The position numbers and the translations under genes were made by a program. Shown one piece after another: positions 29,127 through 52,646 of a stretch of DNA of 64,000 nucleotides. The stretch is from positions 1 to 64,000 of the forward strand of contig NZ_JADOVH010000005.1 of NCBI RefSeq assembly GCF_015751965.1. Direction: 5' to 3'. Below the pieces are notes generated by a model. It ran no database searches, was not told the origin of the DNA, and saw only the letters and a list, made by a program, of their open reading frames with translations. Source of the DNA: Frigoribacterium sp. CG_9.8 (GTDB taxonomy: Bacteria; Actinomycetota; Actinomycetes; Actinomycetales; Microbacteriaceae). Position 1 is the stretch's first letter. Each line of letters begins with the position of its first letter.

Positions 29127-31667
29127 GTGACTACCCCAGCAATTCCTGCCGCCACTTCTGCCACTGCTGGCTCGACCAGCGTCGCCGACACCGTGTCGAA
29201 TGCCGAGGTGACTCCCCACAGGGAGCAGCCCTACGCGGCCCTCGGGCTCAAGGAGGCAGAGTACCTGTCGATCCGCGAGATTCTCGGGCGGCGGCCAACG
29301 AGCGGTGAACTCGCGATGTACTCGGTGATGTGGAGCGAGCACTGCTCCTACAAGTCGTCAAAAATCTATCTGCGGCAGTTCGGCGACAAGACCACCGAGA
29401 AGATGCGCACCAACCTCATGGTGGGCATGGGCGAGAATGCGGGCGTCGTGGATGTGGGCCAGGGTTGGGCCGTGACCTTCAAGATCGAGAGCCACAACCA
29501 TCCGTCCTACATCGAGCCATTCCAGGGTGCCGCGACCGGCGTCGGGGGAATCGTGCGCGACATCATCTCGATGGGCGCGCGCCCGGTCGCGGTGATGGAT
29601 GCGCTGCGCTTCGGCGCGATCGATGACCCCGACACAGCCCGTGTCGTGCACGGTGTCGTCGCCGGAATCTCGTTTTACGGCAACTGCCTCGGCCTGCCGA
29701 ATATCGGCGGGGAGACCTGGTTCGACTCCGTCTATCAGGCGAATCCGCTCGTCAACGCGCTTGCCGTCGGAGTGCTACGCCATGAAGATCTGCACCTCGC
29801 GAATGCCCGCGGCGTGGGCAACAAAGTCGTGCTGTTCGGAGCCCGCACCGGCGGAGATGGCATCGGCGGAGCATCCATCCTCGCCTCTGACTCCTTCTCT
29901 GCGGGCGGCCCGACCAAGCGACCCGCCGTGCAGGTGGGTGACCCCTTCGCCGAAAAGGTGCTCATCGAGTGCTGCCTCGAGCTGTTCCAGCAGGAGCTGG
30001 TCGAGGGCATCCAGGATCTGGGGGCCGCCGGCATCAGCTGCGCCACGTCGGAGCTCGCCTCCAACGGCGACGGCGGAATGTTCATCGAACTCGAGAAGGT
30101 GCTGCTTCGCGACCCCACCCTCACGGCAGAAGGGATTCTGATGTCCGAGAGCCAGGAGCGCATGATGGCGATCGTGACGCCCGAGAAGCTTGCCGGTTTC
30201 CTCGCTGTGGTCGAGAAGTGGGATGTCGAGACCTCCGTACTCGGCGAGGTGACCGACACCGGCCGCCTCATCATCCACTGGCACGGCGAAGAGATCGTCA
30301 ATGTGCTGCCACGCACCGTCGCGGTCGACGGCCCGGTGTACGAGCGAGAAGTCGCCTACCCGACCTGGCAGGATGCCCTGCAGGCAGACTCGTCATCGTC
30401 GCTGGCCCGCGCCGCGACATCCACCCTCTTGAGGGAGCAGGCGATCGCTCTTCTCGGCAGCGGCAACCTCGCCTCGAAAGAGTGGATCACCAACCAGTAC
30501 GACCGCTATGTCATGGGCAACACCGCGCTCTCGTTCCCGGATGACGGCGGCATGGTGCGCATCGACGAAGGCAGCGGCCTCGGATTCGCCGTTGCCACCG
30601 ATGCCAACGGCCGTTACGCCTACCTCGACCCCTACCGTGGGGCCCAACTCGCCCTCGCTGAGGCCTTCCGCAATGTGGCCGTCACCGGAGCAACCCCGGT
30701 CGCCGTCTCCGACTGCCTCAACTTCGGCTCGCCGGAGAACCCCGAGGTGATGTGGCAGTTCTCGCAGGCCGTCGAAGGGCTGGCGGACGGATGCCTCGAG
30801 CTCGAGATTCCCGTCACCGGCGGCAACGTGTCGTTCTACAACCAGACCGGTGACGTGCCGATCCATCCGACCCCGGTCGTGGCTGTGCTCGGAGTGATCA
30901 ACGATGTCGCGGACCGCATCCCGAGCGGCTGGCAGGACGAGGGCAACAACATCTACCTGCTCGGCACCACGCGCGACGAGCTCGACGGATCCGCCTGGGC
31001 GGGAGTCATCCACTCCCATCTCGGCGGTCGTCCGCCCCTCGTGGACTTCGCCGCCGAACAGGCACTCGCCGGGCTCATCAAGTCGGGCTCGAAGCAGAAC
31101 ATCATCGCCTCCGCGCACGACCTCTCAGACGGTGGGCTCATCCAGGCCGTCTCCGAGTCGATTCTGCGCTTCGGTGTAGGCGCCCGGCTGTGGATCACGG
31201 AGCTCATGGAGCGCGACGGAGTGGATGCGACGGCCGCCCTGTTCAGCGAGTCGGGTGCGCGAGCGATCGTCTCGGTGCCGCGCGAAGACGACGTGCGCTT
31301 CATCGGGCTGTGCGAGGGGCGCGGTGTGCCAGCCCTGCGCGTCGGCGTGACGGATGGCGGCGGCTTCGGCGCGTCTGCGGATGCGGCTGCGGATGCGTCT
31401 ACGTCTGCGTCTACGTCTACGTCTGCGTCTACGGATGCGTCTACGTCTACGTCTGTATCTACGTCTACGGATGCGTCTACGTCTGCGTCTACGTCTACGG
31501 ATGCGTCTACGTCTACGTCTGTATCTACGTCTACGGATGCGGAACGCGGCGCACCTGCGGGCGCGACTCTCGACGTGCAAGACCACTTCGTCATCACTCT
31601 CGACGAGTTGCGCGCCACCCACCGCGGCACGCTAGCTGAGCACTTCGGCCCAGTAGTAGGCCACTAG
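29127..31667 (+). CDS. purL: Phosphoribosylformylglycinamidine synthase, PurL subunit, with low-complexity insertion
   Basis: 846 residues against the usual 740-770 for small PurL. It uses ATP and ammonia from PurQ to make FGAM. Conserved parts: [30 protein letters not shown], the second-half ATP-fold [10 protein letters not shown] and AHDLSDGGL. Two additions are visible: an N-terminal Ala/Ser/Thr-rich stretch of about 30 residues and, at residues 751-806, a Ser/Thr/Ala/Asp repeat encoded by a hexanucleotide microsatellite just before the C-terminal [12 protein letters not shown] helix. The insertion is in frame. Possible -10 TAGAAT at 29079 and AGGAG at 29111. Confidence 0.95.
31375..31545 (+). 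repeat. Hexanucleotide microsatellite inside purL
   Basis: Tracts of TCTACG and TCTGCG hexamers punctuated by GGATGCG, with a 66-bp higher-order duplication (copies start at 31433 and 31499). The protein is a run of Ser, Thr, Ala, Val and Asp. All steps are multiples of three, so frame is kept. Confidence 0.95.
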
Positions 31668-31675
31668 TCCCAAAA

Positions 31676-31750
31676 CCCTGCCGATCAACGGTCAAAGAGT
31701 GTCGCCTGACAGTGCGTTAGGCGACACTCTTTGACCGTTGATCGGCAGGG
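31676..31750. repeat. Family-2 palindrome, copy D (perfect 32-bp arms)
   Basis: The left arm 31676-31707 and the right arm 31719-31750 are exact reverse complements (32 of 32), with an 11-nt loop. The inner ends of the arms are GTCAAAGAGTGTCGCCT and its complement. It lies between purL and the DUF559-like gene. There is no T-tract after it, so it is not a standard terminator. Confidence 0.97.
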
Positions 31751-31799
31751 CTGGGGATAGTTTTGGCGGCATTTTTGCGGGAGCGGGCACAGTGGGGGG

Positions 31800-32711
31800 A
31801 TGTCGCGCCACCGAGCTATTCCCCCGAGCCTGTCTGAGCGTGTGTTCACAGTGCCCGAGGCGGTAAGTGCTGGCGTGACAAAGCGACGGCTGCGCGGATC
31901 GGACCTCGCGGCGCCATTCTTCGCGGTGCGGGTGGCCGCGGCGACGGCAGTGACTCCGAGCATCAGCACCCTTGCCCATGCGTTTGCCGTCAGGCTAGCA
32001 TCCGACCAGTTCTTCAGCCATCTGACCGCCGCGACCCTGCTCGGCCTTCGCCTGCCCGAGCGTCATCTGCCATTAATTCTGGATGTCGCGGTGCTCGCGC
32101 CCGCACGTCTTCCCCGGCTCCGCGGCATCCGTGGTCACCAGCTGATGCCGAGTGCGCGGATCGAGACGTTACCGGACGGTCTGCGGGTGAGCTCCGCCGT
32201 CGACACATGGTGCCAGCTTGCGGCCGTTCTCCAGCTGGACGAGTTGATCGTGATGGGCGACGGGCTCCTGCAGCGGGAGCATCCTCTCGCATCCAGGGCC
32301 GAATTAGTGTCGACGATTGACGCCTGGGGCCACCGCCCCGGCGTGACCAATTTGCGTGAAGCTCTGCTGCACCTGCGGGCCCGCACCGATTCGGCGCGCG
32401 AGACGATGCTTCGACTCATCGTCATTCGAGCCGGTTTTCCGGAGCCGGTCGTGAACCACAAAATCTACAACCGGTTCGGGGCGTTGATCGCACATGGCGA
32501 TCTCGCCTTCCCGGAATACCGGGTACTGCTCGAGTATGACGGCGCTGTGCACCGCCAGGAACATCAATTTCATGTGGATATCGCGCGTCTTGACGGGCTG
32601 ATGGAGGAGCGATGGCGGGTCATCCGCGTCGACAAGCAGCTGATGGCGGCGCGCGCGACCCTGCTAGGCAAAGTGCACACGGCCCTGACGGCGGCCGGCT
32701 GGCGCGGCTGA
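31800..32711 (+). CDS. DUF559/Vsr-like endonuclease-fold protein with AbiEi-like N-terminus
   Basis: 303 residues. The N-terminal part (VFTVPEAVSAGVTKRRLRG) looks like the winged-helix domain of AbiEi-type antitoxins, and the middle (SHLTAATLLGLRLPER) matches proteins commonly called type IV TA AbiEi-like. The last 110 residues (GDLAFPEYRVLLEYDGAVHR, then RWRVIRVD) have the D-x(n)-E-x-D plus His layout of DUF559, a Vsr-like PD-(D/E)xK nuclease fold. No AbiEii toxin follows it. The gene is bracketed by two large palindromes of one family. A single-strand or hairpin nicking role is possible but untested. Confidence 0.75.
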   Translation: MSRHRAIPPSLSERVFTVPEAVSAGVTKRRLRGSDLAAPFFAVRVAAATAVTPSISTLAHAFAVRLASDQFFSHLTAATLLGLRLPERHLPLILDVAVLAPARLPRLRGIRGHQLMPSARIETLPDGLRVSSAVDTWCQLAAVLQLDELIVMGDGLLQREHPLASRAELVSTIDAWGHRPGVTNLREALLHLRARTDSARETMLRLIVIRAGFPEPVVNHKIYNRFGALIAHGDLAFPEYRVLLEYDGAVHRQEHQFHVDIARLDGLMEERWRVIRVDKQLMAARATLLGKVHTALTAAGWRG

Positions 32712-32735
32712 CCCCCGTCCCACTCCAAACTTGCA

Positions 32736-32798
32736 AGTTCAACTGTCAAAGAATGTCGCCTGGCGACCAGTTAGGCGACATTCTTTGACAGTTGAGCT
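32736..32798. repeat. Family-2 palindrome, copy E
   Basis: Perfect 23-bp arms (32739-32761 and 32773-32795), extended outward by a G-T wobble and two more pairs, again around an 11-nt loop. The arm contains CAACTGTCAAAGAATGTCG. It lies between the convergent DUF559-like and chorismate mutase genes. Confidence 0.95.
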
Positions 32799-32819
32799 GA
32801 GGATCGAGCGGGATTGGGC

Positions 32820-33137
32820 TCAGGCCTGAGTGGCTATTGCTCCGGTGCTGGCGATCTGCTCGTGCTGGTGGATGACCTCGGCGATGATGAAGTTGAGAAA
32901 TTTTTCACCGAAGGCGGGATCGAGATGCGACTCGGATGCCAACGCCTTGAGCTTGGTGATCTGCTCGAGTTCGCGCCCCGGGTCCGCCGCCGGCAGTCCA
33001 CTGGATGCCTTGAGCCGCCCCACCTGCTGGGTGAACTTGAATCGCTCGGCGAGGAGATGCACGAGAGCGGCGTCTACGTTGTCGATGCTCTGGCGAAGGC
33101 TCAAGAGCTGGGCGGCGGGATCGAGAGAGTCAGGCAT
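32820..33137 (-). CDS. Chorismate mutase, AroQ type
   Basis: 105 residues, all-helical, with LSLRQSIDNVDAALVHLLAERFKFTQQVGRLKA, the AroQ signature (Arg of the first helix, and the LLAER-K pattern). It isomerises chorismate to prephenate at the entry to Phe and Tyr. The lack of a signal peptide argues for a cytosolic enzyme. Actinobacterial forms of this type can be activated by DAHP synthase. It stands alone here, next to the Ohr gene. Confidence 0.9.
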   Translation of the reverse strand: MPDSLDPAAQLLSLRQSIDNVDAALVHLLAERFKFTQQVGRLKASSGLPAADPGRELEQITKLKALASESHLDPAFGEKFLNFIIAEVIHQHEQIASTGAIATQA

Positions 33138-35028: not shown

Positions 35029-35101
35029 CCCCAGATCAGCTGTCAAAGAAGGCCGCCTAATCGCGTGCCGGACGACATTCTTTGACAGTTGACCTGTGGG
35101 G
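35029..35101. repeat. Family-2 palindrome, copy F (degenerate)
   Basis: Arms resemble copies D and E (CAGCTGTCAAAGAAGGCCG and GACGACATTCTTTGACAGTT) with several mismatches, again with an 11-nt loop (35059-35069). The right arm is closer to copy E than the left. It lies between the convergent maleylpyruvate-isomerase-like gene and purA. Confidence 0.9.
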
Positions 35102-39861: not shown

Positions 39862-40227
39862 CGGCGAGCGGATGCGTGTGGCCGGTCACCCACCCGCGTG
39901 GCCACCCGCGTACTCTCGCGCCGCACTCCTCAACAAATCGACTTGGTAGACGTTGCGGGTTCTAAGGCGCCAAAGTCGCAACGATTACCACGTCGATTAC
40001 GGAATGCACGATTACGGAATGCACGATTGTGGAGGGCACCACTATGGAGGGCACCACTGCGGCGGGCACCCCGGCGCACGAAGCCGGGGCATCCCGTGAG
40101 TACGTGCATTCATCAGCGCGTGCGCCTGCCCGAGCGCAAGCGCATGCGCGTGCGTCTGCGCAAGTACCTGCCCGAGCCAGTGCCCGAGCCCGAGCCAGTT
40201 CGCGTCAAGCTGCCCGTGCCCGGAGCC
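39862..40227. other. Gap with low-complexity repeats, no gene
   Basis: Holds a 15-bp minisatellite at 39994-40068 and a GC-rich low-complexity tract at about 40120-40215 built on CGAGCGCAAGCGCATGCGCG and GAGCCAGTGCCCGAGCC motifs. It separates the convergent YhgE and SpoU methyltransferase genes. The open frames across it are by-products of the repeats. Confidence 0.7.
39994..40068. repeat. 15-bp minisatellite, five diverging copies
   Basis: Two exact CGATTACGGAATGCA units, then CGATTGTGGAGGGCA, CCACTATGGAGGGCA and CCACTGCGGCGGGCA. The copies diverge stepwise from one end to the other. Confidence 0.9.
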
Positions 40228-52578: not shown

Positions 52579-52646
52579 ACCACCTACCATTTTTACGACC
52601 ACCACCCTGTTTCGACAGGGGGGTGGTAGTAAAAACGGGAGATGGT
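52579..52646. repeat. Family-1 palindromic repeat, copy C (68 bp)
   Basis: Arms ACCACCTACCATTTTTACGA and the opposite GTAGTAAAAACGGGAGATGG are near complements, with inner ACCACCCTG and CAGGGGGGTGGT. Same 68-bp length and polarity as the copies at 8095 and 12765. Lies between the convergent threonine aldolase and alcohol dehydrogenase genes. Confidence 0.9.

What the first reader, a model, noticed from the sequence alone, without database searches (positions are those of the whole stretch)
31676..32798. Lone DUF559/Vsr-like nuclease-fold gene bracketed by two large palindromes of one family
Copy D (perfect 32-bp arms) lies 49 bases before the next ATG and copy E (perfect 23-bp arms) 25 bases after the stop. 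They share arm sequence and the same 11-nt loop length, and a third, degenerate copy (F) lies 2.2 kb downstream with no gene of its own. A gene with a nuclease fold between matching hairpins recalls RAYT transposases with REP pairs, but this is a different protein family. The hypothesis is a mobile or self-maintaining unit in which the nuclease cuts or processes these hairpins. Alternatives: the hairpins are transcription borders, or part of a defence gene's regulation.
Basis: partly seen in the sequence, partly recalled or inferred. Interest (0 to 1): 0.78.

Follow-up and report, generated by a model that had tools for sequence, protein, structure and literature searches.

The report
Nuclease genes with private matching palindromes
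In many actinobacteria, genes for a predicted DNA-cutting protein are each bracketed by a matching pair of about 60-base palindromes that, in the genomes checked, also lie scattered elsewhere on the chromosome, which looks like an undescribed self-maintaining or mobile DNA partnership.

Summary
The window gene (31800-32711) predicts as an AbiEi-antitoxin-like part fused to a Vsr/EDxHD homing-endonuclease fold. It belongs to a multi-copy family: homologues in 47 of 60 family genomes and 186 of 246 class genomes. Of 71 loci with complete flanks, 37 carry palindromes on both sides and 23 on one; the upstream palindrome best matches its own downstream partner in 33 of 34 pairs. Solitary copies lie in the same genome: 3 for the window gene, 7 for a second gene (one at window 39936-39998), 14 sites (12 distinct) in relative G001. 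Copies were found almost only in genomes with the cognate gene; draft G005 has copies but no gene found. Solitary sites persist between sister species, arms 97-99% identical, flanks 81-85%. No Y1 transposase match in the 13 genus genomes. A DnaA-box-like motif lies upstream of 40 of 101 genes, mostly about 48 nt before the start. Best reading: a partnership that works like REPIN-RAYT with unrelated proteins, the palindromes being dimer target sites. Binding, cleavage and mobility are inferred, not shown.

The parts
31676..31750 (.). upstream palindrome D (window family)
31752..31760 (+). TGGGGATAG, a degenerate form (2 mismatches) of the TGTGGATAA motif seen between upstream palindrome and start codon in relatives; 48 nt before the ATG, the commonest distance
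   Evidence: weak here by sequence
31800..32711 (+). 303-aa protein: residues ~3-193 AbiEi-like, ~197-301 Vsr/EDxHD-type nuclease fold
32736..32798 (.). downstream palindrome E (window family)
35029..35099 (.). solitary, degenerate palindrome F of the window family, between convergent genes
39936..39998 (.). solitary palindrome of a second family, cognate to another homologue of the same genome (G000:C4:23934-24836)

Best explanation
Each gene of this family and its private palindromes form one replicating partnership. SHOWN: most of the genes examined are bracketed on one or both sides by about 60-bp palindromes whose sequence is private to that gene; in the three families followed, further solitary copies lie in the same genome; units are present or absent at orthologous places; in the family compared between sister species, arms of solitary copies are held far more constant than flanks, and between genomes both arms change together. 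SUPPORTED BY PREDICTION: the protein joins an AbiEi-like part (AbiEi binds two 23-bp inverted repeats as two monomers) to an EDxHD/Vsr-type nuclease domain (I-Bth0305I of this class dimerises on a target of nearly 60 bp). INFERRED: a protein dimer reads the two arms of its palindrome in duplex DNA, represses its own promoter through the upstream copy, and nicks or cuts at palindromes; repair by recombination between copies spreads the unit (homing into palindromes), homogenises the copies, and occasionally deletes the gene leaving a solitary palindrome. A DnaA-box-like motif before the gene may tie expression to replication. It thus works like REPIN-RAYT, with unrelated proteins.
Against: No cleavage, binding or movement was observed. 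G005 keeps 8 solitary copies with no cognate gene found in its 90%-complete draft. 11 of 71 loci have no palindrome on either side even at the lax threshold; orthologues at purL in G003 and G007 have none recognisable. Protein distance predicts palindrome distance only weakly (Mantel rho 0.11, 27 of 2000 permutations as high; for the first 50 residues 0.04, 529 of 2000; n = 32). Sharing of 8 of 8 sites between G005 and G006 argues for slow, mainly vertical persistence rather than active movement. No target-site duplication was found, and pair orientation is random (24 direct, 21 inverted, 3 ties of 48). The genome searches scored a limited number of candidates per genome, so absences elsewhere are not complete.
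Confidence: 0.55

Rival explanations
1. Regulatory sites only: the AbiEi-like part is an autorepressor and the palindromes are its operators; solitary copies are a regulon or chromosomal binding sites, and the nuclease domain serves defence or is vestigial.
For: AbiEi and Rv2827c bind pairs of 23-bp inverted repeats in their own promoters (passages of PMC7319586); the upstream palindrome ends 58-131 nt before the start in the middle 80% of 51 loci, with a conserved motif between; arms are conserved at solitary sites; one solitary copy lies upstream of a gene (G000:C2).
Against: It does not explain the downstream palindrome, within 27 nt of the stop in 32 of 42 loci, solitary copies between convergent genes (F; G000:C6 after rplQ), or presence/absence of whole units; the residues expected of the nuclease site are conserved.
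Confidence: 0.25
2. Defence gene with self-marking sites: the nuclease attacks foreign DNA and the palindromes mark or insulate the gene as self.
For: 9 of 24 family members match PADLOC AbiEi models (the window protein does not); Vsr/restriction-like fold; palindromes of syntenic units in G001, G004 and G007 differ completely.
Against: No partner methyltransferase, helicase or AbiEii toxin beside the window gene (neighbours purL, chorismate mutase); scattered solitary copies are not expected.
Confidence: 0.08
3. Palindromes are moved by another transposase and the nuclease gene is a passenger.
For: Solitary copies behave like miniature elements with fairly sharp ends.
Against: Each gene has its own palindrome sequence, matched on both sides, in 33 of 34 pairs; no PF01797 (Y1) match in 13 genus genomes. 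Other transposase families were not searched.
Confidence: 0.07
4. Ordinary bidirectional transcription terminators.
For: Some solitary copies sit between convergent genes (F; G000:C6).
Against: The simple scan gives 2 terminator-like sites in 31600-32900, both short sub-stems, against 0.7 expected; sequence match between the two sides and privacy per gene are not expected of terminators.
Confidence: 0.05

Closest known systems
REPIN-RAYT systems (REP-associated tyrosine transposases)
   Same: Each gene has its own palindrome family next to it and scattered through the genome; the genes within a genome are distinct single copies; sequence populations persist over long times (passages of PMC3116915; abstract of PMC8049555)
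   Different: RAYTs are IS200-like tyrosine transposases; this protein has an AbiEi-like part and a Vsr/EDxHD nuclease fold and the genus has no PF01797 match; the palindrome stands on both sides of the gene; 3-14 solitary copies were found per family here, against 101 aligned GI REPINs in SBW25
EDxHD homing endonucleases (I-Bth0305I)
   Different: Bracketed by intact target-like palindromes instead of sitting inside a split target; DNA-binding part is AbiEi-like; chromosomal, rarely on phage or plasmid records
AbiEi antitoxins of type IV toxin-antitoxin systems
   Different: No AbiEii toxin neighbour in the window; extra nuclease domain; downstream and scattered copies of the repeats
Vsr / DUF559 / REase_MTES_1575 nucleases
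   Different: I know of no description of bracketing palindromes; the 14 held papers that name DUF559 were seen only as a listing, so this is not established from their texts
IS200/IS605 and MITE-like elements
   Same: Palindromes at or near both ends, non-autonomous copies (features recalled, partly)
   Different: No Y1 enzyme; no target duplication found

Membership tests
REPIN-RAYT | palindrome family private to an adjacent gene, with dispersed copies | tested here: met
   three families followed; pairs:
REPIN-RAYT | the associated gene is a Y1 (HUH) tyrosine transposase | tested here: not met
   predicted fold is Vsr/EDxHD plus AbiEi; PF01797 in 0 of 13 genus genomes (6 of them at least 90% complete and at most 5% contaminated), control rings in 5 of 14
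EDxHD homing endonuclease | EDxHD-type catalytic domain | tested here: inconclusive
EDxHD homing endonuclease | gene interrupts its own target so that it protects itself | tested here: not met
   if the palindromes are the targets, they are intact on both sides of the gene
EDxHD homing endonuclease | site-specific cleavage shown | not testable with these tools
   needs biochemistry
AbiE type IV toxin-antitoxin | AbiEi fold in the antitoxin | tested here: met
AbiE type IV toxin-antitoxin | adjacent AbiEii nucleotidyltransferase toxin | tested here: not met
   neighbours are purL and chorismate mutase; only the window neighbourhood was examined
DUF559 (PF04480) | match above the curated cut-off | tested here: not met
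   13 bits (whole) and 15.6 bits (C-terminal part) against 20.6 for the window protein; 10 of 24 relatives match at E <= 1e-3
classical DNA transposon | target-site duplication or exact empty site | tested here: inconclusive
   presence/absence shown, junction resolved only to tens of bases

The most novel reading that the evidence does not exclude
A new class of selfish or mutualistic bacterial DNA: a nuclease of restriction/homing-endonuclease fold, not a transposase, that maintains, homogenises and slowly spreads a private population of about 60-bp palindromes across the chromosome by cutting and recombinational repair, with expression tied to replication through a DnaA box, and with specificity that turns over rapidly along with the palindromes.
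Probability: 0.4. Interest if true: 0.93.

Novelty: categorically new. Interest (0 to 1): 0.86.

Why it matters
The best-studied partners of dispersed bacterial palindromes are the RAYT transposases, and how such tiny sequence populations persist is an open question (abstract). A second system with unrelated proteins, whose gene family is abundant in actinobacteria (homologues in 186 of 246 class genomes), would let that question be tested by comparison. It would also assign a role to a large group of proteins of unknown function, and it offers many natural pairs of protein and long private target.

Tried and rejected
RNA reading: Rfam matches are to animal microRNA hairpins below their gathering scores (mir-9436 43.2 bits against 80, E 4e-7), taken as hairpin shape only.

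Co-evolution by distance: Mantel correlation weak; of the 32 loci only L041/L085 (65% identity) and L046/L049 (53%) clearly share palindromes. L081 and L082 were dropped before this test because their best hairpins do not form a pair.

Target duplication or fixed orientation: none; 24 direct, 21 inverted, 3 ties of 48 pairs (L081, L082, L286, L287 dropped).

Fresh movement between sisters: rejected for the second family, since 8 of 8 sites are shared by G005 and G006 (L306/L314 by one flank only; the pair L305/L313 is 99-100% identical including flanks and may be an assembly or contamination effect, and it raises the means given).

Exact empty site: not reached; the closest is gene A-AKR, resolved to tens of bases. 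G009, empty there, has a palindrome of another kind on the far side of AKR; G000, G002 and G003 have other genes in this region and no homologue in it; G005, G006, G008 and G012 could not be judged. For L074 the left flanks are rearranged.

Dropped hits: three and C2:34357 are not palindromes. Outside the window's family, f2 (1 locus) and f4 (2 loci) did not have both sides.

Carriage on plasmids or phages: 5 of 72,556 plasmid records and 1 of 50,697 phage records at 28-34% identity.

Limits: the genome search scored at most 23 or 33 candidates per genome, so weak single copies in other genomes could be missed. The hairpin finder selects complementarity, so pairing counts on its output lean towards pairing. 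In one search copies were kept only if they resembled a seed. The 451 control ORFs are mechanical calls. Foldseek against PDB never ran, so the fold statement rests on VIA-align, which re-ranks Foldseek's candidates.

Full report
OBSERVATION. Two further copies lie elsewhere in the genome, one between a Nudix-like gene and a DUF222/HNH-like gene on the same strand, one between convergent rplQ and acyltransferase-like genes (these gene names are read from the translations).

A FAMILY-WIDE ARCHITECTURE. Homologues occur in 12 of 13 genus genomes, 0-7 each, 47 of 60 family genomes, up to 19 each, and 186 of 246 class genomes. In 72 non-redundant loci (10 duplicates dropped; no further pair above 97% identity) palindromes are about 50 times denser within 200 bp of the gene than elsewhere in the same loci. 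Of the 71 loci with complete flanks, 37 have both, 23 one and 11 none at score >=11 (30, 23 and 18 at >=13). The two palindromes of a locus match each other better than any other locus's in 33 of 34 pairs. The upstream one ends 58-131 nt before the start in the middle 80% of 51 loci; the downstream one begins within 27 nt of the stop in 32 of 42. Among 29 class loci 18 have both sides at score >=11, of which L286 and L287 look like chance; families outside the window's own with both sides are f5, f8, f19, f24 and f29, while f2 (1 locus) and f4 (2 loci) lack a pair. Palindrome length is narrow: median 59.5, IQR 57-63.

PRIVATE POPULATIONS. The second own-genome homologue (G000:C4:23934-24836) has its pair and seven solitary copies, one inside this window at 39936-39998. 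A third (C2:186195) has a pair and a fourth (C1:296133) one palindrome; their solitary copies were not sought. G001's family has 14 solitary sites (12 distinct) and none was found in the 12 other genus genomes. The window family was found only in its own genome, although orthologues lie next to purL in G003 and G007 and on the chorismate-mutase side in G002. The second family was found in G000, G006 (cognate gene L041 present) and G005 (no cognate gene found in the 90%-complete draft), and not in the other ten. G005 is the one result against strict tracking; and because only the best 23-33 candidates per genome were scored, absences are not absolute.

PRESENCE AND ABSENCE. Between gene A and an aldo/keto-reductase-like gene (AKR), G007 and G004 carry a unit; G001 carries one without AKR; G009 and G010 have neither gene nor palindrome there (G009 has a palindrome of another kind beyond AKR); G011 has a lone palindrome of another family and no gene; G000, G002 and G003 have other genes in the region and no homologue in it. 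The three filled places have flanks 73-82% alike but wholly different, internally matched palindrome pairs. At purL, G001 and G005 have an SDR-like gene directly after purL and no unit. In G002 the orthologue has its own pair; in G003 and G007 no palindrome is recognisable. The L074 unit of Cryobacterium cheniae is missing within 1.5 kb of gene X in 20 of 20 relatives examined, of 29 fetched.

CONSTRAINT ON SOLITARY COPIES. Eight of eight G006 copies are at orthologous places in G005. Mean identities are 81-85% for flanks, 97-99% for arms and 87% for loops (one pair is nearly identical throughout and raises all means). Three of seven G000 copies match G006 sites by flank (L125/L308 by one flank only); at L115/L311 and L125/L308 the same two arm positions differ on both arms (AC/GT or CA/TG against TT/AA), and nearly all G005 and G006 copies carry TT/AA. 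L119/L310 is imperfectly paired in G000. Over 27 copies, 408 of 432 cells are standard pairs (copies partly selected for pairing). This pattern, alike within a genome and compensatory between arms, suggests either selection for a co-evolving reader or conversion among copies.

A CONSERVED MOTIF. TGTGGATAA with at most one mismatch lies in the sense direction within 160 bp upstream of 40 of 101 genes, against 4 antisense and 1 of 1313 control windows and 0 of 451 other mechanically called ORFs in the same loci. Its distance to the start peaks at 46-48 nt (19 of 40). It is the reverse complement of the DnaA-box consensus TTATCCACA (recalled, not from a call). It could also form part of a promoter. 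In the window a form with two mismatches (TGGGGATAG) stands exactly 48 nt before the ATG.

MECHANISM. AbiEi binds two 23-bp inverted repeats, 3 bp apart, as two monomers (passages of PMC7319586), and I-Bth0305I dimerises on nearly 60 bp (passage of PMC3943268). A protein joining both parts, bracketed by palindromes of about 60 bp with arms of about 20-26 bp, is most simply read as a dimer that reads its own palindromes. Cutting them would give breaks repaired from other copies, which would explain homogenised arms, solitary palindromes after gene loss, and units arriving at new places. Those steps are inferred. PF01797 has no match in the 13 genus genomes, so a hidden RAYT is unlikely; other transposases were not searched.

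KNOWN OR NEW. It works like REPIN-RAYT (passages and an abstract) but fails that family's defining enzyme; it is not a homing endonuclease in the usual sense if the palindromes are its targets, because they are intact beside it; and it lacks an AbiE toxin partner in the window. Searches of the held open-access library listed nothing that describes it: DUF559 with REP and palindromic (2 papers), DUF559 with hairpin (1), a five-term mobile-element search (1,963 papers, 20 listed), RAYT/REP/nuclease/hairpin/actinobacteria (7), homing endonuclease with Vsr or EDxHD (25, 20 listed), AbiEi with DUF559 (0), REPIN/RAYT/Actinobacteria (247, 12 listed), DUF559 alone (14). These were seen as listings with the starts of abstracts. 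Subscription papers and preprints are largely not held, so prior description elsewhere is possible.

The EDxHD-domain membership row was lowered to inconclusive, the flank range at the gene A place was widened to 73-82%, the G009 palindrome beyond AKR and the candidate caps were added, and the motif position was corrected to 31752-31760.

Noticed in passing
window 52579-52646: Another long imperfect palindrome (arms about 32 nt, loop 4), not assigned to any homologue; possibly a further family.
   Followed up: no
window 31390-31545: purL carries a low-complexity insertion near its C terminus (repeated Ala/Ser/Thr codons) that is absent from the G001 and G005 purL read here.
   Followed up: no
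L028 2459-3995 (G000:C2): A solitary window-family palindrome lies directly upstream of a DUF222/HNH-like endonuclease gene (13E12-type; name recalled).
   Followed up: no
L119, L310, L317: Second-family solitary palindromes sit beside the same tRNA-like stretch (apparently Ser, read by eye) in G000, G006 and G005; the unit loci L068, L072, L075, L081 and L084 match the same stretch some 3-5 kb from their genes.
   Followed up: partly
L253 (G072), -526 to -121 before gene X: Two palindrome families each present twice in one intergenic stretch, like REP clusters.
   Followed up: no
L205 2380-2438 (G011): Solitary palindrome of a different family where relatives carry a full unit: gene loss or re-invasion.
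   Followed up: partly
L298/L299 and L303/L304 (G001): Stretches of about 500 bp, 100% identical, at different places in inverse orientation, suggesting assembly duplication or a segmental duplication.
   Followed up: partly
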